The notes beneath the pieces were generated by a model. That model was not told the origin of the DNA. It worked only from the letters and a program-made list of their open reading frames with translations, and did no database searches. A stretch of 64,000 nt of DNA, taken from Streptomyces griseiscabiei (GTDB lineage: Bacteria > Actinomycetota > Actinomycetes > Streptomycetales > Streptomycetaceae). The DNA lies in contig NZ_JAGJBZ010000002.1 of assembly GCF_020010925.1 (NCBI RefSeq), positions 1,054,001-1,118,000 of the forward strand. The letters run 5' to 3'. The first letter of the stretch is position 1, and every line of letters starts with the position of its first letter. Both the position numbers and the translations under genes were made by a program. Below are positions 55,559 through 64,000 of this stretch, piece after piece.

Positions 55559-56386
55559 ATGAGTCCCTTCACCGGCTCCGCCGCCCGCACCCCCGACTGG
55601 CGACATCTGCGGTGCGCGATCACCGACGGTGTCGCCACCGTCACCCTCGCCCGCCCCGAGAAGCTCAACGCCCTCACCTTCGGCTCCTACGCCGATCTGC
55701 GCGACCTGCTCGCCGAGCTGTCCCGGGAACGGTCCGTACGGGCGCTGGTGCTGGCCGGTGACGGCCGGGGCTTCTGCTCCGGCGGGGACGTCGACGAGAT
55801 CATCGGCGCCACCCTCGCCATGGACACCGCCCAGCTGCTCGACTTCAACCGGATGACCGGCCAGGTCGTCCGGGCCGTACGCGAATGCCCGTTCCCGGTG
55901 ATCGCCGCCGTGCACGGCGTGGCCGCGGGCGCCGGCGCGGTCCTCGCCCTGGCGGCCGACTTCCGGGTGGCCGACCCGACCGCCCGCTTCTCCTTCCTCT
56001 TCACCCGCGTCGGCCTCTCCGGCGGCGACATGGGCGCCGCCTACCTCCTGCCCCGCGTCGTCGGCCTCGGCCACGCCACCCGCCTCCTCATGCTCGGCGA
56101 ACCCGTCCGCGCCCCCGAGGCCGAACGCATCGGCCTCATCAGCCGGCTCACCGACGAGGGCGGCGCCGACGAGGCCGCCCACGCCCTGGCCCGCCGCCTG
56201 GCCGAGGGCCCGGCCCTGGCATACGCCCAGACCAAGGCGCTGCTGACCGCTGAACTGGACATGCCGCTGTCGGCCGCCGTCGAACTGGACGCGGCCACCC
56301 AGGCGTTGCTGATGAACGGCGACGACTACGCCGAATTCCACGCCGCGTTCACCGAAAAACGCCCCCCGAAGTGGCAGGGCCACTGA
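55559..56386 (+). CDS. Enoyl-CoA hydratase/isomerase family protein
   Basis: This 275-residue crotonase-fold protein has its oxyanion-hole segments in ALVLAGDGRGFCSGGDVDE (about 62-80) and VHGVAAGAGAVLALAADFRV (about 117-136). Glu/Asp near LSGGDMGAAYLLPR sits where catalytic residues occur. The length is typical. The TGA stop overlaps the ATG of the next gene by one base (TGATG), so it is coupled to the monooxygenase/reductase fusion. A role in hydration or ring opening of a dearomatised aryl-CoA is likely. Confidence 0.9.
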   Translation: MSPFTGSAARTPDWRHLRCAITDGVATVTLARPEKLNALTFGSYADLRDLLAELSRERSVRALVLAGDGRGFCSGGDVDEIIGATLAMDTAQLLDFNRMTGQVVRAVRECPFPVIAAVHGVAAGAGAVLALAADFRVADPTARFSFLFTRVGLSGGDMGAAYLLPRVVGLGHATRLLMLGEPVRAPEAERIGLISRLTDEGGADEAAHALARRLAEGPALAYAQTKALLTAELDMPLSAAVELDAATQALLMNGDDYAEFHAAFTEKRPPKWQGH

Positions 56387-58776
56387 TGCGGCCCTCACTT
56401 CACGGGCAGAGCCCAGAAGCACCGGAGTCAGGGGCGCGGGGCGTTGTCGATATGCGGCTCCGCCGCGGGGCGCGACCAGCCCCCACGGACCCGCAGCCGC
56501 CGACGAACCCCACCCGTATCGCGATCATCGGCGGCGGCCCCGCCGGCCTCTACGCCGCGGCCCTCCTCAAACGCCTCGACCCCACCCGCGAGATAACCCT
56601 CTGGGAACGCAACCCCCCGGACCACACCTTCGGCTTCGGCGTGGTCCTCTCCGACGAGACCCTCGGCGGCATAGAACACGCCGACCCGACCGCCTACGAC
56701 GCTCTGCGGCCCCACTTCACCCGCTGGGACGACATCACCATCGTCCACCGGAACACCCGCCACACCTCGGGAGGCCACGGCTTCGCCGCCCTCGGCCGCC
56801 ACCGCCTCCTCCGCATCCTGCAAGACCGCTGCCGCACCCTCGGCGTGGAACTCCGCTTCGGCACCGAGGCCCCCTACCCCGCCTGGCTCTGCGAGACGTA
56901 CGACCTGGTCATCGCGGCCGACGGGGTGCACAGCGCGACCCGCGAGGCGTACGCGCAGGCGTTCCGGCCGACGGTCGAGGAACACCGGTGCCGCTACATC
57001 TGGCTCGCCGCCGACTTCGCCTTCGAGGCGTTCCGCTTCGAGATCGCCGAGACCGAGCACGGCGTGATGCAACTGCACGGCTACCCGTATGCGCCGGACG
57101 CCTCCACCGTCATCGTGGAGATGCGCGAGGAGGTGTGGCGGGCCGCCGGGCTGGACCTCGCGGACGAGCGGGAGTCGGTCGAGCGGTGCGCGAAGCTCTT
57201 CGCGGACGTGCTCGGCGGCAGGCCGCTGCGCTCCAACAACTCCACCTGGACCACCTTCCGCACGGTCGTCAACGAGCGCTGGTCGCACGGCAATCTGGTG
57301 CTGCTCGGCGACGCCGCGCACACCGCGCACTTCTCCATCGGCTCCGGTACCAAGCTGGCCGTCGAGGACGCCCTGGCGCTCGCCGCCTGCCTGGAGGAAC
57401 AGCCCGACCTGGCGACGGCGTTGACGGCGTACGAGGCGGAACGGCGCCCGGTGGTCGCCTCGACGCAGCGGGCGGCGCGGGCCAGCCTGGAGTGGTTCGA
57501 GAACATCGGGCTCCATCTCGACCAGCCCGCCCGGCAGTTCGCCTTCAACCTGCTCACCCGCAGCCGCCGCGTCACCCACGACAACCTGCGGATGCGCGAC
57601 CCGCACTTCACGGACGCGGTGGAGCGCGAGTTCGGCTGCCCGCCGGGAACGCCCCCGATGTTCACCCCGTTCCGGCTGCGCGGGCTGACCCTGCGCAACC
57701 GGGTCGTCGTCTCCCCGATGGACATGTACTCGGCGACCGACGGCGTCCCCGGCGACTTCCACCTCGTCCACCTCGGCGCCCGTGCCCTCGGCGGCGCCGG
57801 GCTCGTGATGACGGAGATGGTGTGCGTGAGCCCCGAGGGGCGGATCACCCCGGGCTGCGCGGGACTGTGGAACTCCCGGCAGGCCGAGGCATGGCGCCGC
57901 ACGGTGGCGTTCGTGCACGAGCGGGCGCCGGGCACGGCCATCGGCGTCCAGCTGGGCCACTCCGGCCGCAAGGGTTCGACCAGGCTGATGTGGGAGGGCA
58001 TGGACGAGCCGCTCGACGCGGACAACTGGCCCCTGGCGGCGGCCTCCCCGATCCCCTACAAGCCCGGCAGCCAGACGCCACGCGCCCTCTCCCGTGCTCA
58101 ACTCACCGACATCCGGGAGCAGTTCACCGCGGCCGCCGTGCGCGCCGCCCGCAGCGGCTTCGATCTCCTCGAACTCCACTGCGCCCACGGCTACTTGCTC
58201 TCCGGCTTCCTCTCCCCGCTGACGAACCACCGCACCGACCGCTACGGCGGCCCGCTCGACCACCGGCTGCGCTACCCCCTGGAGGTCTTCGACGCCGTAC
58301 GGGCGGTGTGGCCGGAGGACCGCCCCATGACCGTCCGGGTCTCGGCCACGGACTGGGCCGCCGGCGGGACGACGGCCGAGGACGCCGTGGCGATCGCCCG
58401 TGCCTTCGCCGCGCACGGCGCCGACGCGATCGACGTCTCGACCGGGCAGGTCGTCGCCGACGAGCACCCCGAGTACGGCCGCTCGTACCAGACCCCGTTC
58501 GCGGACCGGATCCGGCACGAGGCGGGCGTCCCGGTGATCGCCGTCGGCGCCATCTCCTCCTGGGACGACGTCAACTCCCTGATCCTGGCGGGCCGTACGG
58601 ACCTCTGCGCCCTCGGCCGCCCCCACCTGTACGACCCGCACTGGACCCTCCACGCGGCGGCGGAACAGTCCTACGAGGGCCCGGGCGTGACCTGGCCCGC
58701 CCCCTACCGCGCCGGCAGCCGCCGCCCCAACACAGGCCGCACGGACGCCCCCAAGCCACGGCTGACCCTGTCCTAG
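56386..58776 (+). CDS. Aryl-CoA monooxygenase/old-yellow-enzyme fusion (salicylyl-CoA 5-hydroxylase type)
   Basis: This 796-residue two-domain flavoenzyme has an N-terminal FAD monooxygenase with IAIIGGGPAGLYAAAL (about 45-60), an Asp-containing VIAADGVHS and LLGDAAHTAHFS (about 306-317). The C-terminal old-yellow-enzyme domain (about 426-775) shows NRVVVSPMDMYSA, VQLGHSGRKGS and ELHCAHGYLLSGFLSPLTN. The layout equals bifunctional salicylyl-CoA 5-hydroxylase/oxidoreductase and 2-aminobenzoyl-CoA monooxygenase/reductase. The first 45 residues overlap a dispersed repeat (56431-56488). The ATG at 56452 lies inside it and is an alternative start. Confidence 0.9.
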   Translation: MRPSLHGQSPEAPESGARGVVDMRLRRGARPAPTDPQPPTNPTRIAIIGGGPAGLYAAALLKRLDPTREITLWERNPPDHTFGFGVVLSDETLGGIEHADPTAYDALRPHFTRWDDITIVHRNTRHTSGGHGFAALGRHRLLRILQDRCRTLGVELRFGTEAPYPAWLCETYDLVIAADGVHSATREAYAQAFRPTVEEHRCRYIWLAADFAFEAFRFEIAETEHGVMQLHGYPYAPDASTVIVEMREEVWRAAGLDLADERESVERCAKLFADVLGGRPLRSNNSTWTTFRTVVNERWSHGNLVLLGDAAHTAHFSIGSGTKLAVEDALALAACLEEQPDLATALTAYEAERRPVVASTQRAARASLEWFENIGLHLDQPARQFAFNLLTRSRRVTHDNLRMRDPHFTDAVEREFGCPPGTPPMFTPFRLRGLTLRNRVVVSPMDMYSATDGVPGDFHLVHLGARALGGAGLVMTEMVCVSPEGRITPGCAGLWNSRQAEAWRRTVAFVHERAPGTAIGVQLGHSGRKGSTRLMWEGMDEPLDADNWPLAAASPIPYKPGSQTPRALSRAQLTDIREQFTAAAVRAARSGFDLLELHCAHGYLLSGFLSPLTNHRTDRYGGPLDHRLRYPLEVFDAVRAVWPEDRPMTVRVSATDWAAGGTTAEDAVAIARAFAAHGADAIDVSTGQVVADEHPEYGRSYQTPFADRIRHEAGVPVIAVGAISSWDDVNSLILAGRTDLCALGRPHLYDPHWTLHAAAEQSYEGPGVTWPAPYRAGSRRPNTGRTDAPKPRLTLS
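56431..56488. repeat. Dispersed GGGGCGCGGGG...GACCAGCCCCCACG repeat inside an N-terminus
   Basis: The wording (GGGGCGCGGGG, GTCGATATGCGGCTCCGCCG, GCGACCAGCCCC) is that of an intergenic Streptomyces repeat. Here it lies within the first codons of the fusion enzyme or its leader, depending on the start used. Confidence 0.6.
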
Positions 58777-58981: not shown

Positions 58982-59530
58982 GTGCTCACCACCTGGGTGG
59001 TCATGCCCACCTGCCTGCCGCTCGTCCGGCGTCGCTGCCACACATGCGGGTCCGACCGCTTCCGGGCCGACGGCAGGTTTCGCGTCAACGCCCACCACAA
59101 ACTCCTCGACGCCTGGCTCCTCGTCCTGTGCGCCGGGTGCGGGGAGACGGCGAAACTCACGGTCCTGGAGCGCGCGAACGTACGCTCCGTACGGCCCGGA
59201 CTGCTGGACCGCATGCACGCCAACGACCCTTCCCTGGCGGCCGAACTGCTCCGGCATCCGGTCCTGCTGCGGCGCAACCGTGTCGCCCTGGACTGGGGCG
59301 GCGCCTGGCGTCTGGACACCGGCGGAACGGATCAGCTGGACCATGAGGTGCTCGACGTCTCGGTCCGCTTCGCGGCGCGGATCCCGGTCCGCCCGGTGCG
59401 CCTGATCGCCGAAGGCTGCGGACTGCGACGGGCCGACGTCGAGCGACTGATCACGGACGGGAGACTCGTCTCGACGGTCCGGCTGAACGGCCGGGTCTCC
59501 GGCGACTTCACCTTCACGCTCAAGCGCTGA
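58982..59530 (+). CDS. DUF1062 protein
   Basis: This 182-residue protein starts with GTG. Zinc-finger-like cysteine pairs lie in CHTCGSDRF (about 19-27) and CAGCGE (about 50-55). Conserved VNAHHKLLDAWLLVL lies between them. The C-terminal half contains GLRRADVERLITDGRL, reminiscent of an S4-like RNA-binding element. It matches the DUF1062 family, function unknown. The 205 bases before it contain no recognised gene. A strong terminator follows. Confidence 0.82.
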   Translation: MLTTWVVMPTCLPLVRRRCHTCGSDRFRADGRFRVNAHHKLLDAWLLVLCAGCGETAKLTVLERANVRSVRPGLLDRMHANDPSLAAELLRHPVLLRRNRVALDWGGAWRLDTGGTDQLDHEVLDVSVRFAARIPVRPVRLIAEGCGLRRADVERLITDGRLVSTVRLNGRVSGDFTFTLKR

Positions 59531-59589: not shown

Positions 59590-60813
59590 CTACGGCAGTT
59601 CCGCCATCCCCGCCGTCAGCGTCGCCCCGTCCGCCGGGTCGACCAGGATGAACGCGCCCGTCCGCCGCACCGCCGCGTAGGCGTCCAGCGCCAGCGGCTC
59701 CGCCGTGCGCAGCACGATCCGGCCCAGGTCGTTCGTGGTCAGCTCGGGGGACGCGCCGAGGTCCCTGACGATCGCCTTCACGGTGCGGGTGGTGTGGCGG
59801 AGCAGGACGCGGTCGCCCACCCGGAGGGGCCGCTCCGCGAGATGGCAGACCGCCGCCCGGACGTCCCGCGTCAGCGTCGGCGCGTCCGGCGCGTCCGGTC
59901 CGCCCGCCGTGATCATGTCCCCGCGGGAGATGTCCCGCTGGTCCGCCAGCCGCACACTGATCGACTGCGGCGCGTACGCGGCCCGCGCCGCCTCGCCCAG
60001 GACGTCGATCCCCGTGATCTCGGAGGTCTCCCCGGACGGCTGCACGGTCACCCGGTCACCCACCCGCAGCGCCCCCGACACCAACTGCCCCGCGTAGTGC
60101 CGGACTTCACCGTGCCGGATCACATACTGCACCGGGAAGCGGACCGGCGCGTCGGCCGCCGCCACGCCCACCGGCACGGTCTCCAGGAACTCGAGAAGCG
60201 CCGGGCCGTCGTACCAGTCCGTCCGCCCGGACCGCTCGACGACGTTGTCACCGGCCAGCGCCGAGACCGGGATCGGTGTGAAGCCGGGCAGCCCCAGCTC
60301 GTCCGCGTGGCGCCCGAAGTCCTCGACGATCCGCCGGAACTCCTTCTCCTCGTACCCGACGAGGTCCATCTTGTTGACCGCGAGGACCACGTGCGGCACC
60401 CGCAGCAGCGCGGCGACGCCCGCGTGCCGCAGCGTCTGCTCGACCACGCCGTTGCGGGCGTCGACCAGGATGATCGCCAGCTCGGCGGTGGAGGCGCCGG
60501 TGACCATGTTGCGGGTGTACTGCACATGGCCGGGGGTGTCGGCGAGGATGAACCGGCGCTTGGCGGTGGCGAAGTAGCGGTAGGCCACGTCGATGGTGAT
60601 GCCCTGCTCGCGCTCGGCCCGCAGCCCGTCGGTGAGCAGGGCGAGGTCCGGGGTGTCCTGGCCACGGCTCGCCGAGGCCCGCTCCACGGCCTCCAACTGG
60701 TCCGCCAGCACCGACTTGGAGTCGTGCAGCAGCCGCCCGACGAGGGTGGACTTGCCGTCGTCGACCGAACCGGCGGTCGCGAAGCGCAGGGTGTCGATGG
60801 TCATCGTGCTCAT
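59590..60813 (-). CDS. cysN: Sulfate adenylyltransferase large subunit (GTPase)
   Basis: This 407-residue elongation-factor-like GTPase has a G1 loop GSVDDGKST (15-23), G3 DTPGHVQYTRN (about 92) and G4 NKMDLVGY (about 146), then two beta-barrel domains. With CysD it makes APS from ATP and sulfate, driven by GTP. It is shorter than the E. coli protein (about 475). It is the last gene of the operon, two bases after cysD. The absence of cysH in the operon points to PAPS for sulfation. Confidence 0.93.
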   Translation of the reverse strand: MSTMTIDTLRFATAGSVDDGKSTLVGRLLHDSKSVLADQLEAVERASASRGQDTPDLALLTDGLRAEREQGITIDVAYRYFATAKRRFILADTPGHVQYTRNMVTGASTAELAIILVDARNGVVEQTLRHAGVAALLRVPHVVLAVNKMDLVGYEEKEFRRIVEDFGRHADELGLPGFTPIPVSALAGDNVVERSGRTDWYDGPALLEFLETVPVGVAAADAPVRFPVQYVIRHGEVRHYAGQLVSGALRVGDRVTVQPSGETSEITGIDVLGEAARAAYAPQSISVRLADQRDISRGDMITAGGPDAPDAPTLTRDVRAAVCHLAERPLRVGDRVLLRHTTRTVKAIVRDLGASPELTTNDLGRIVLRTAEPLALDAYAAVRRTGAFILVDPADGATLTAGMAELP

Positions 60814-60815
60814 GC

Positions 60816-61718
60816 CTAGAAATACCCCTCGCGCTTACGGTCCTCCATCGCGGCCTCGGACATCTTGTCGTCCGCGCGCGTCGCGCCCCGCTCGGTCAGC
60901 CGGGAGGCCGCGATCTCGGCGATGACCTGGTCCAGCGTCACCGCGTCCGAGTCCACGGCGCCCGTGCAGGACATGTCACCGACCGTCCGGTACCGCACCT
61001 GCCGCTTCTCGACCGTCTCGCCGCCCTTCGGGCCGCCCCACTCACCGGCGGTCAGCCACATCCCGCCCCGCATGAACACCTCGCGGTGATGGGCGAAGTA
61101 GATCTCCGGCAGCTCGATGCCCTCACGGGCGATGTACTGCCAGACGTCCAGCTCGGTCCAGTTGGAGAGCGGGAAGACACGCACATGCTCACCGGGAGCG
61201 TGCCGCCCGTTGTACAGGTTCCACAACTCCGGCCGCTGCCGCCGCGGGTCCCACTGCGAGAACTCGTCCCGCAGCGAGAACACCCGCTCCTTGGCGCGCG
61301 CCTTCTCCTCGTCCCGGCGCCCGCCGCCGAAGACCGCGTCGAACCGCTCCGCCTGGATCCTCTCCGTCAACGGCACGGTCTGCAGCGGATTCCGCGTCCC
61401 GTCCGGCCGCTCCCGCAGCACCCCCCGGTCGATGTAGTCCTGCACCGAGGCGACATGCAGCCGCAGCCCGTGCGCGGCCACCGTACGGTCGCGGTACTCC
61501 AGCACCTCGGGGAAGTTGTGCCCGGTGTCCACGTGCAGCAGCGAGAACGGCACGGGCGCGGGCGTGAACGCCTTCAGTGCCAGGTGCAGCATGACGATGG
61601 AGTCCTTGCCGCCGGAGAAGAGGATCACCGGCCGCTCGAACTCACCCGCCACCTCACGGAAGATATGGACCGCCTCCGACTCCAGCGCGTCCAGATGGGA
61701 CAGGACGGGGGCGGTCAT
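60816..61718 (-). CDS. cysD: Sulfate adenylyltransferase small subunit
   Basis: This 300-residue PP-loop ATPase has SGGKDSIVMLHLALKAF (about 32-48), HVDTGHNFPEVLEYRD and GGRRDEEKARAKER. The C-terminus ends DRKREGYF as in CysD proteins. It is the catalytic subunit of ATP sulfurylase. Start ATG 61718 overlaps the cysC stop by four bases (ATGA); cysN follows after two bases. Confidence 0.94.
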   Translation of the reverse strand: MTAPVLSHLDALESEAVHIFREVAGEFERPVILFSGGKDSIVMLHLALKAFTPAPVPFSLLHVDTGHNFPEVLEYRDRTVAAHGLRLHVASVQDYIDRGVLRERPDGTRNPLQTVPLTERIQAERFDAVFGGGRRDEEKARAKERVFSLRDEFSQWDPRRQRPELWNLYNGRHAPGEHVRVFPLSNWTELDVWQYIAREGIELPEIYFAHHREVFMRGGMWLTAGEWGGPKGGETVEKRQVRYRTVGDMSCTGAVDSDAVTLDQVIAEIAASRLTERGATRADDKMSEAAMEDRKREGYF

Positions 61719-62275
61719 ACGAGGCCCCGTCCGGCCAGCAGCGCGTACACGGAAGCGGCCGACTCGTCGGGCGTCCGGTCCTGCGTGGGGAGGACGAGCG
61801 CGGGGTCGGCCGGCGGCTCGTACGGGTCGTCGACACCGGTCAGGCCCTTGAGCTGTCCGGCGGCCTGGCGGGCGTAGAGACCCTTCACGTCGCGTTCGCT
61901 GCACACCTCGACGGGGGTGGCGACATGCACCTCGAAGTACGGGGTGCCGCTCACGTCGTGGCGTTTGCGGACGGCCTCGCGGCTGTCGGCGTACGGCGCG
62001 ATGACGGGGACGAGGGAGAGCACGCCGTTGCGGGCGAGGACCTCGGCGACCAGCCCGATGCGCTGCACGTTGGTGTTGCGGTCCTCGCGGGAGAAGCCGA
62101 GACCGGCGGAGAGGAAGCGGCGGATCTCGTCACCGTCGAGCACCTCCACCCGGTGCCCCTCGGAGCGCAGCCGGCCGGCGAGGACGCGGGCGATCGTGGT
62201 CTTGCCCGCGCTCGGCAGTCCGGTGAGCCAGACCGTGGCTCCCTGGGCCCTGGGAGCCCTGGACGAGGTGGTCAT
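61715..62275 (-). CDS. cysC: Adenylylsulfate kinase
   Basis: This 186-residue kinase phosphorylates APS to PAPS. P-loop GLPSAGKTT (19-27), DGDEIRRFLSAGLGFSREDR (about 48-67) and NVQRIGLVAEVLARNG are canonical. Length is typical. It overlaps both cysD and the glycosyltransferase gene by four bases. PAPS is the sulfate donor for sulfotransferases, which supports a dedicated sulfation operon. Confidence 0.94.
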   Translation of the reverse strand: MTTSSRAPRAQGATVWLTGLPSAGKTTIARVLAGRLRSEGHRVEVLDGDEIRRFLSAGLGFSREDRNTNVQRIGLVAEVLARNGVLSLVPVIAPYADSREAVRKRHDVSGTPYFEVHVATPVEVCSERDVKGLYARQAAGQLKGLTGVDDPYEPPADPALVLPTQDRTPDESAASVYALLAGRGLV

Positions 62276-63516
62276 GCGTGGGTTCCTTTCGCGGCGCCGG
62301 CGGCGATGCCGTGCCGTTGTTCGTGGAGGGAGGTGAAGAGGGACTCCCAGCGGTGGTGCACGGAGTCCGGACCGTAGGAGGCGGCGGTGAGGACCGCGGC
62401 CACGCCCATGTCGGCGCGCAGCACCTCGTCGGCCATCAGCCCGGCCATCGCGTCGGCGAGCGCGTCGGGGTCCTCGGGTGCGACGAGCAGCCCGTCCACG
62501 CCGTGCGTGAGCACGTCGGCGGGGCCGGTCGGGCAGTCGAAGCTGACCACGGGCAGGGCGTGGCTCATCGCCTCGATCATCACCATCGGCAGTCCCTCGA
62601 AGCGTGAACTGAGCACGTAGAAGGAGGCCTTGGCGAGTTCGTCGTCCAGGCGGTCGGTGTGTCCCATGAGGAAGACGTGATTGTAGAGATGGTGTTCTTC
62701 GATGAGATGACGGAGTTCCGACTTCTTCTCGCCGCTGCCGTAGATTCTGAGGCGCCAGTCGGGGTAGGTCTCGACGAGCTTCGCCCAGGCCGGGATCAGC
62801 AGGTCGAAGCCCTTCTGCGGGAAGAGCCGGCCGGCCGCCACCGCGATTTTCGACCGGGGGTCGGCGGGGATCTGGTCCAGGGAGTGCACGGCGTTGGGGA
62901 TGCGCACGACCTCGGTCCCGGGCAGGAGTTCGGCGTACTCCTCGCGGTCCCGTTCGGTGAGCACGGCGACGGTGGCGAAGCTCGGGTAGGTCTCCCGGAT
63001 GCGCTGCCGCACGTCCCGTTTGTGGGTGCCGAGGTTCATGTGCTCCTGGGCGATCCGGACGACCCCGCCCGTGGCGTGCTCGGCGGCCAGGAAGTTCAGC
63101 GCGGGCCGGGTGGTGACCAGGACGCCGTCGGTCAGCGACCGCAGATAGGCGATGAGCCGGTCCTCGACGTACCGGTTGAAGTAGCGGTAGCCGAACTCGC
63201 CCTTCGGGATGTGCCGGGCGGGCGCCTCCAGCAGTTCGCCGCGCCTGCGGTCGCGCCAGCGGGCGAGAAGGCCGGACGGCGGGGTGTGGGCGCCCTCGCG
63301 CATGTCCACGACCGTGGAGACCCTCACCCGGGGGTCGAGCGGGAACTGGATGTCGTCGCGGCGGCGCAGCGCGCTGACGATCTCCACGGTCCAGCCCGCC
63401 GCGACCAGGGAGTTGGCCTGGTTCATCACCGTGCGGATGGTGCCGCCCCGCCCGTAGGCGTGGAGCAGCAGATAGCGGATGCGGGGGCGCTGGGGGAGCG
63501 GGCGGCGGTCGGTCAT
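62272..63516 (-). CDS. GT-B glycosyltransferase (family 4 type)
   Basis: This 414-residue glycosyltransferase has an N-terminal acceptor domain starting RIRYLLLHAYGRGGTIRTVM, whose GRGG loop is typical of GT4. The C-terminal nucleotide-sugar domain shows VAAGRLFPQKGFDLLIPAW (about 225-243) and the EX7E-like region SRFEGLPMVMIEAMSHALP (about 318-336). It has no signal peptide, so it works at the cytoplasmic membrane face. It is fused by four-base overlaps to cysC and to the upstream gene, suggesting synthesis of a sulfated glycan or cell-wall polymer. Confidence 0.9.
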   Translation of the reverse strand: MTDRRPLPQRPRIRYLLLHAYGRGGTIRTVMNQANSLVAAGWTVEIVSALRRRDDIQFPLDPRVRVSTVVDMREGAHTPPSGLLARWRDRRRGELLEAPARHIPKGEFGYRYFNRYVEDRLIAYLRSLTDGVLVTTRPALNFLAAEHATGGVVRIAQEHMNLGTHKRDVRQRIRETYPSFATVAVLTERDREEYAELLPGTEVVRIPNAVHSLDQIPADPRSKIAVAAGRLFPQKGFDLLIPAWAKLVETYPDWRLRIYGSGEKKSELRHLIEEHHLYNHVFLMGHTDRLDDELAKASFYVLSSRFEGLPMVMIEAMSHALPVVSFDCPTGPADVLTHGVDGLLVAPEDPDALADAMAGLMADEVLRADMGVAAVLTAASYGPDSVHHRWESLFTSLHEQRHGIAAGAAKGTHA

Positions 63517-63938
63517 GCGGAGCCTCCCGTGCGGCACTCCAGAGACAGGTTGTCCTTGATCGTGTAGTAGGGGCGCACCCGGAGGTCCCCGGTGCGCTGC
63601 TCCGGATACACGAAGATCTTCTTCTTGCCGCGTACGTCGTCGAGGTGCTTCCCGGCGCGCAGTTCGACCTCGCCGTCGGTGAGGTGGATGTCCCACTCCT
63701 CGACGGCCGCGTGGCCGGGGGCGGCGAGGTCGGCGACGGGCAGTTCGCTCTCGAAGCGGTCGTCCCTGACGTCGGCGGCGTAGCGCAGGGTGTGGCCGGC
63801 CCGCGCGCGGCGGGTGAGGACCAGCTGCCAGGTGCCGTCCGCCGGGACCCCGTGGATGCGTCCGATGAGTCTGATGCGTCCGTCGCGCGGCCAGACCTCG
63901 GTCATCTCGGCGTGCGGCTTCACTTGCTGTAGCCCCAT
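63513..63938 (-). CDS. Hypothetical beta-rich protein in the sulfation/glycan operon
   Basis: This 141-residue protein begins MGLQQVKPHAEMTEVWP. It is dominated by beta strands (RIRLIGRIHGV, TWQLVLTRRARAG, WDIHLTDGEVELRAG) and ends with YTIKDNLSLECRTGG. It has no signal peptide or catalytic motif I recognise. Similar short beta domains accompany glycerophospho- or glycosyltransferases in cell-wall polymer clusters, but that is only an impression. GTG 63947 is an alternative start. It overlaps the glycosyltransferase gene by four bases. Confidence 0.7.
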   Translation of the reverse strand: MGLQQVKPHAEMTEVWPRDGRIRLIGRIHGVPADGTWQLVLTRRARAGHTLRYAADVRDDRFESELPVADLAAPGHAAVEEWDIHLTDGEVELRAGKHLDDVRGKKKIFVYPEQRTGDLRVRPYYTIKDNLSLECRTGGSA

Positions 63939-64000
63939 GCCTCGCACATCGGCCGCAGGAGATCGGGGATGTCGTCCTCGGCGGGCAGCGCCCGTCCGGC
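63920..64000 (-). CDS. C-terminal end of a further operon gene (truncated by the window)
   Basis: An open minus-strand frame runs from the right edge to a stop at 63920. Its 26 residues end in DLLRPMCEAWGYSK, with strongly G/C third positions. It overlaps the next gene start by 19 bases, as is usual in this operon. The family cannot be told from this fragment. Confidence 0.6.
   Translation of the reverse strand, partial: AGRALPAEDDIPDLLRPMCEAWGYSK

What the first reader, a model, noticed from the sequence alone, without database searches (positions are those of the whole stretch)
59590..64000. PAPS synthesis genes embedded in a glycosyltransferase operon
Two unassigned genes, a GT4 glycosyltransferase, cysC, cysD and cysN follow one another with overlaps of 4-19 bases or a 2-base gap. 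APS kinase but no PAPS reductase points to sulfation. This suggests an undescribed sulfated cell-wall or capsular glycan; the rest of the cluster probably continues to the right of the window.
Basis: partly seen in the sequence, partly recalled or inferred. Interest (0 to 1): 0.7.

Follow-up and report, generated by a model that had tools for sequence, protein, structure and literature searches.

The report
Self-supplied glycan sulfation operon in Streptomyces
This operon of a soil bacterium appears to make its own activated sulfate and use it to sulfate a sugar added by a teichoic-acid-type glycosyltransferase, so it may decorate the cell surface with sulfate, which is little documented in these bacteria.

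Summary
Confirmed and extended. The window ends inside a six-gene minus-strand operon: sulfotransferase (ST, 63920-64816, mostly outside), a 136-aa domain, a TarM-like GT4, cysC, cysD, cysN, joined by four 4-base overlaps and a 2-base gap. In a 295-genome Streptomyces sample, 22 of 22 close GT4 relatives lie directly downstream of an ST. The small domain is fused to the ST in some relatives and beside or inside GT4s in others; cysCDN is variably present. One promoter-like element heads the module at this site whichever genes remain. One relative of the ST sits in a Stealth/GT/methyltransferase cluster. I conclude: a dedicated PAPS-plus-sulfotransferase cassette that sulfates a GT4-made sugar, probably on a surface glycopolymer (inferred; no polymer genes were recognised nearby). 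Dedicated PAPS cassettes are already known in Streptomyces (adp, for a small molecule) and in marine capsule clusters; the GT4/small-domain pairing is the new part. Side finding: in 7 of 9 genomes compared, not this one, cysD is closer to that genome's own assimilatory copy than to other operon copies, as gene conversion would give.

The parts
63920..64000 (-). 3' end of the sulfotransferase gene (Sulfotransfer_3); the whole gene is 63920-64816 in extended coordinates (C2:1117920-1118816), 298 aa
   Evidence: PF13469 1e-27; R71 S72 G73 S74 T75, R170 and S178 kept in at least 97% of 78 aligned relatives; their reading as PAPS-binding loops is recalled
63513..63923 (-). 136-aa small domain, no Pfam, NCBIfam or PDB-sequence match; fused to the sulfotransferase C-terminus in some relatives, beside or C-terminal in GT4s in others
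62272..63516 (-). GT4 glycosyltransferase, 414 aa; best solved relatives are TarM chains (C-terminal half only)
61715..62275 (-). cysC, APS kinase (one of two in the genome over the cut-off)
60816..61718 (-). cysD, sulfate adenylyltransferase small subunit (second copy)
59590..60813 (-). cysN, sulfate adenylyltransferase large subunit (second copy)

Best explanation
A dedicated sulfation cassette. CysD-CysN make APS and CysC phosphorylates it to PAPS (inferred from close family membership). The sulfotransferase at the head of the operon moves the sulfate onto a hydroxyl of a sugar that the TarM-like GT4 has added to an acceptor (inferred from linkage, domain sharing and gene context). The small domain is probably a docking or acceptor-binding module, because it rides on either enzyme. 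The acceptor is most likely a surface glycopolymer precursor (teichoic-acid- or Stealth-type) made elsewhere in the genome and exported after sulfation. The module has its own promoter-like element downstream of PaaX. My odds: sulfation step about 0.9; sugar made by GT4 as substrate about 0.65; surface glycopolymer as carrier about 0.5.
For: Sulfotransferase in the operon; separate assimilatory set. In the 295-genome sample, 22 of 22 GT4 hits at E<=1e-100 (18 genomes) have an ST upstream on the same strand, 407-584 bases between the matches. ST-linked GT4s form one clade (support 0.91) apart from three own-genome paralogs, with a branching order much like that of the ST; several nodes are weak. 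The small domain is fused to the ST in L093-L095 and L168, L169, L172, L175, L195. Of the 29 best-scoring small-domain loci fetched from a class-wide sample, 27 have a GT4 next to it or in the same protein. In the slot before small domain-GT4, one relative has a different, weakly matching sulfotransferase (20.5 bits, cut-off 22) and one an FkbM methyltransferase. The former lies among GLF, GlfT2-type, GT2 and ABC exporter genes; a direct ST relative (L178, 58% identical) lies among Stealth, GT4, GT2 and TylF-type methyltransferase genes. Own GT4 paralogs sit beside a glycerophosphotransferase (L077) and Stealth proteins (L075). In G184, G047 and G105 the only CysC at E<=1e-40 is the operon copy. 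The same ~50-bp element lies upstream of ST and, in 22 of 22 loci with cysC but no ST at this site, upstream of cysC.
Against: No polymerase, flippase or exporter recognised near the operon in this genome. At the same site some genomes keep only the ST and at least 22 keep only cysC with or without cysD/cysN, so neither half strictly needs the other in cis. Many ST-GT4 loci carry no cys genes (e.g. L094, L095, L171-L174), and G120 has the triad but no CysC hit at E<=1e-40. The TarM match covers only query residues 162-396, and protein O-glycosyltransferase models (SdgA 1e-28, SdgB 1e-26, far under their cut-offs) match as well. The ST's nearest solved relatives are CurM (polyketide) and protein-tyrosine sulfotransferases. 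The shared element is absent upstream of 29 of 30 ST loci outside this site. No structure could be predicted. Acceptor and carrier are untested.
Confidence: 0.6

Rival explanations
1. A natural-product sulfation cassette: GT4 and ST glycosylate and sulfate a small molecule or peptide, as the adp cassette does (without a GT) for adipostatins.
For: adp of S. davaonensis is PKS-ST-APS kinase-CysD-CysN in one operon, and adding the PAPS genes raised di-sulfated product (passages of PMC12135136); its section 2.5 says the ssl and ssc lanthipeptide clusters also carry PAPS cassettes. ST's best solved relative is CurM. The site lies in an aromatic acyl-CoA catabolic cluster. In one relative (L187) a PKS-like reading frame lies a few kb beyond GT4 on the other strand (my reading).
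Against: No PKS, NRPS or lanthipeptide gene was recognised by eye in the window or 52 kb to its right (no natural-product predictor was run). GT4 and the small domain belong to families seen with Stealth, glycerophosphotransferase, GLF/GlfT2-type genes. The ST-small domain-GT4 triad occurs in varied gene settings.
Confidence: 0.2
2. A sulfoglycolipid pathway: GT4 glycosylates a membrane lipid and ST sulfates the sugar.
For: GT4 also matches PimA and PimB-type mannosyltransferases (E 5.5e-12 to 2.1e-11); no polymer genes are needed, which fits the compact operon; mycobacterial sulfolipid is a recalled precedent.
Against: The TarM match is stronger (1.4e-25); no acyltransferase or lipid exporter in the operon.
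Confidence: 0.17
3. The extra cysCDN is a general PAPS booster and its place beside ST-GT4 is incidental.
For: At least 22 genomes of the 295 have cysC, mostly with cysD and cysN, at the same site without ST or GT4; in 6 of these 22 no strong ST match was found elsewhere either.
Against: 16 of those 22 have a strong ST elsewhere, against 38 of 263 other genomes (not corrected for ancestry, cut-off set after seeing the list); ST and cysC share the same upstream element; ST-GT4-cysC-cysD-cysN recurs at other loci (L093; L169, L195).
Confidence: 0.1

Closest known systems
adp sulfation cassette of Streptomyces davaonensis (adpPKS-adpST-adpP1-adpP2-adpP3), PMC12135136
   Same: ST followed by APS kinase, CysD and CysN in one operon, with two further PAPS gene sets in the genome (passages read)
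   Different: The scaffold enzyme is a type III PKS, not GT4 plus small domain; the relation of AdpST to this ST was not tested (its sequence was not at hand)
Sulfated capsule clusters of Vibrio sp. KMM 8419 (PMC11641403) and Cobetia marina KMM 1449 (PMC11766843)
   Same: PAPS genes with sulfotransferases and glycosyltransferases; second copies of cysC/cysN/cysD in the Vibrio cluster (passages read)
   Different: Clusters of about 70-80 genes with export genes in Gram-negative bacteria; here six genes and no export genes
wps-1 cluster of Actinoplanes missouriensis (PMC13390465)
   Same: Actinomycete glycan cluster with two predicted sulfotransferases; its authors say the sulfated product awaits verification (passages read)
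   Different: Wzx/Wzy type; the term 'PAPS' does not occur in its text
TarM wall-teichoic-acid glycosyltransferase
   Same: Best solved-structure match of the GT4 (1.4e-25)
   Different: Match limited to the C-terminal part; the GT4 here is shorter and has a separate small domain beside it

Membership tests
PAPS-dependent sulfotransferase (Sulfotransfer_3) | Profile match above the curated cut-off | tested here: met
   98.3 bits against 27
PAPS-dependent sulfotransferase (Sulfotransfer_3) | 5' and 3' phosphosulfate-binding residues conserved | tested here: met
   R71-R78 (RSGSTLLR), R170 and S178 kept in at least 97% of 78 aligned relatives; motif meaning recalled
PAPS-dependent sulfotransferase (Sulfotransfer_3) | Transfers sulfate from PAPS | not testable with these tools
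   needs an assay
Dedicated sulfation cassette (adp type) | ST plus cysC, cysD, cysN in one operon | tested here: met
   (gene order and overlaps; transcription not tested)
Dedicated sulfation cassette (adp type) | Separate PAPS/assimilatory genes elsewhere in the genome | tested here: met
Dedicated sulfation cassette (adp type) | Scaffold-making gene for a small molecule in the operon | tested here: not met
   GT4 and small domain instead
Sulfated capsule cluster | Glycosyltransferase, ST and second PAPS set together | tested here: met
Sulfated capsule cluster | Export and polymerisation genes in the cluster | tested here: not met
   none recognised by eye among called genes of the window and 52 kb to its right
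TarM teichoic-acid glycosyltransferase | GT4 catalytic domain similarity | tested here: met
   E 1.4e-25
TarM teichoic-acid glycosyltransferase | Sequence match over the N-terminal half too | tested here: not met
   the TarM stretches lie within query 162-396

The most novel reading that the evidence does not exclude
Actinomycetes carry a widespread, modular surface-glycan modification system in which a small domain couples a TarM-type GT4 to exchangeable sugar-modifying enzymes (this sulfotransferase family, another one, an FkbM methyltransferase), and in Streptomyces it can come with its own PAPS supply and promoter, giving sulfated wall polymers of teichoic type.
Probability: 0.35. Interest if true: 0.75.

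Novelty: new variant of a known kind. Interest (0 to 1): 0.5.

Why it matters
The authors of PMC13390465 hold that bacterial sulfated polysaccharides are reported only from cyanobacteria (passages); marine capsules of Vibrio and Cobetia are further cases. A compact, self-supplied sulfation module in many Streptomyces would give a simple handle on sulfated surface glycans in soil actinomycetes, and would give a role to an unnamed domain found in 65 of 394 genomes and 18 of 137 genera of a class-wide sample. The cysD pattern offers a natural case of partial concerted evolution between a housekeeping and a specialised pathway.

Tried and rejected
Rejected: that this is the only cys set. Rejected: that the module must be read with PaaX, since ST-GT4 occurs without PaaX and a conserved element lies between PaaX and ST. 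Rejected: a palindrome (GAACCCTCAGGGTTC) as the conserved signal; a loose palindrome pattern matched 5 of 53 ST sites and 6 of 22 cysC sites. A first weight matrix failed because one sequence only passed my filter; the second used 41 of 49 unique upstream sequences. The sigma-70/terminator scan found nothing, which says little for Streptomyces. Profile search of the small domain against PDB sequences: no match up to E 10. Plasmid collection: one record, Nonomuraea gerenzanensis, ST-GT4 without the small domain; no annotation there. Literature: searches (held open-access library) listed no paper that I recognised as describing this operon; one gave no usable source for the CysH motif rule, which is recalled. 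Toned down: gene conversion in cysN. The G014 pair whose cysD is not homogenised (G014a) still runs at 82-90% in the first five cysN windows, so most of the likeness there may be constraint.

Dropped rows and limits: for the Fisher test I left 11 genomes with only weak ST matches out of the ST-positive set and left out the 10 genomes with the operon at the site. Duplicate sequences were removed before trees. Many named loci end at contig ends just after cysC, so absence of cysD/cysN there means nothing; in L081 and L084 the next gene follows in the sequence. Genes in fetched stretches were called by my own codon-score script, not by a standard gene finder.

Full report
Observation. The window (G000:C2:1054001-1118000) ends inside an operon on the minus strand. 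Reading 5' to 3': sulfotransferase ST (63920-64816), a 136-aa protein (63513-63923), GT4 (62272-63516), cysC (61715-62275), cysD (60816-61718), cysN (59590-60813). Four 4-base overlaps and a 2-base gap join them. A gap of 84 bases separates ST from PaaX, which is preceded by an acyl-CoA ligase gene on the same strand. No polymer or export genes were recognised in the window or the 52 kb to its right, by eye.

Separate assimilatory set. The genome has two APS kinases over the cut-off. The second lies at C2:1.513 Mb in a run with genes for cysH, cysC, cysD, cysN, a sulfite-reductase-like protein and what look like transporter genes (the last two named by eye). CysH passes the PRK02090 phosphoadenylyl-sulfate reductase model (274.8 bits, cut-off 154) and nearly reaches the APS reductase model (223.4, cut-off 235.3); it has CC at 146 and CxxC at 229, a pattern I recall for iron-sulfur APS reductases.

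ST and GT4 are a pair. In 295 Streptomyces genomes (evenly drawn), ST had matches in 75, of which I count 64 as strong. GT4 at E<=1e-100 gave 22 hits in 18 genomes, and 22 of 22 lie downstream of an ST, 407-584 bases from it on the same strand. The public scan, whose patterns came from this ST, gave 52 named loci: 26 with ST-small domain-GT4 at the PaaX site, 1 such on a short contig, 9 with ST alone at that site and 1 more cut at a contig start, 10 with ST and GT4 elsewhere (among them Streptomonospora and Sphaerisporangium), 1 in a glycan cluster (Actinophytocola MAG), 3 with ST alone elsewhere, 1 fragment. ST and small domain are one protein in L168, L169, L172, L175 of these, and in L093, L094, L095, L195 of the unnamed set. 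The small domain was not found in L174 and in Nonomuraea, where GT4 follows ST directly. ST and GT4 trees are broadly congruent, with weak support at several nodes.

The small domain. It has no match in Pfam or NCBIfam at E<=0.01, nor in PDB sequences. In the own genome it recurs beside or inside GT4 paralogs at three places. In a class-wide sample of 394 genomes, 65 have it, in 18 of 137 genera; only 10 candidates a genome were scored, so these are lower bounds. Of the 29 best-scoring loci fetched from that sample, 27 have a GT4 adjacent or in the same protein; L250 and L255 do not in the stretch held. In the seven best of these the upstream slot holds ST (L241-L243), a weak Sulfotransfer_1 match below cut-off (L246), an FkbM methyltransferase (L247), or no gene on that strand (L244, L245). 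L246's neighbourhood has Sulfatase, GT2, GLF, GlfT2-type and ABC transporter genes. L178's has Stealth, two GT4, GT2 and TylF methyltransferase genes.

Locus states. At the PaaX site three states exist in the 295-genome sample: cysC, mostly with cysD and cysN, without ST or GT4 in at least 22 genomes; ST-small domain-GT4-cysC in 10, of which 7 with cysD and cysN, 2 without, 1 cut by a contig end; and ST only in at least 8, plus 1 cut at a contig start. Of the 22, 16 have a strong ST elsewhere, against 38 of 263 others, operon genomes left out (Fisher p=1e-8, uncorrected for ancestry). A ~50-bp element ends about 10 bases before ST; a matrix from 41 sites scores 37 to 82 upstream of cysC in 22 of 22 ST-less loci, which were not in the training set, and 33.9 upstream of the operon of L169 at another site. 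The other 29 of 30 ST loci outside the site score -26.9 or less, and the rest of the window and the fetched own-genome stretches -10.7 or less. I read this as one module promoter that stays while genes behind it are lost or gained; which came first is not settled.

Gene conversion. cysD of the operon is more alike to the assimilatory copy of the same genome than to any other operon copy compared in 7 of 9 genomes (G059, G145, G109, G128, G228, G014, G063), up to 99.7%; not in G000 (this genome) or G254. cysC is so in 1 of 11 (G145). In cysN the first five windows run at 79-100%, later ones at 51-89%; since the non-homogenised G014a pair also has 82-90% at the start, constraint may explain much of this, though one 100-base stretch in the own genome is 99% identical. 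In the CysD tree operon and assimilatory copies interleave, partly by genome; CysC copies mostly separate.

Function. Shown: gene order, families, linkage, fusions, second PAPS set. Inferred: PAPS made by the operon feeds ST; ST acts on the sugar placed by GT4; the carrier is a surface glycopolymer. For the glycan reading: GT4's TarM match, paralogs beside a glycerophosphotransferase and Stealth genes, relatives in glycan clusters, and a weak NoeE match of the ST (3e-7, far under its cut-off). Against: no polymer genes nearby, protein O-glycosyltransferase models match GT4 too, ST's nearest solved relatives are not glycan enzymes, and ST stays alone at the site in some genomes.

Known systems. 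PMC12135136 (abstract, passages and section 2.5) reports a Streptomyces ST-cysC-cysD-cysN cassette for adipostatins and that the PAPS genes raise di-sulfation; it says ssl and ssc clusters have such cassettes too. PMC11641403 and PMC11766843 (passages) report PAPS genes in marine capsule clusters. PMC13390465 (passages) predicts but does not show sulfated glycan in Actinoplanes. PMC11481543 (two passages) treats Streptomyces wall polymers; no word beginning 'sulf' occurs in its main text. So the kind is known; I found the variant in no listing of my searches.

Noticed in passing
window 60816-61718 and start of 59590-60813: Operon cysD is closer to the same genome's assimilatory cysD than to other operon copies in 7 of 9 genomes (not in this one), as gene conversion would give; cysC in 1 of 11. 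One 100-base stretch of own cysN is 99% identical to the other copy.
   Followed up: yes
L003:8827-8876 (extended window 64827-64876, outside the window): Conserved ~50-bp element upstream of ST with two CTCAG-like repeats about 21 bases apart, also upstream of cysC where ST is absent.
   Followed up: partly
window 55559-58776 and L003:8901-11360: Salicylyl-CoA 5-hydroxylase/oxidoreductase fusion and enoyl-CoA hydratase on one side, acyl-CoA ligase and PaaX-like regulator on the other: the operon sits inside an aromatic-acid catabolic cluster.
   Followed up: partly
L270 (G519:C24): Small domain-GT4 pair with a weak sulfotransferase match, a sulfatase, GLF, GlfT2-type and ABC exporter genes: a candidate sulfated galactan cluster.
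   Followed up: partly
L006:14438-15217: Assimilatory CysH has a CC...CxxC cysteine pattern, which may mean APS rather than PAPS as substrate.
   Followed up: no
window 58982-59530: DUF1062 protein of unknown function convergent with cysN.
   Followed up: no
L098-L100: ST alone beside genes that look like galT, galE and galK in three genomes (named by eye).
   Followed up: no
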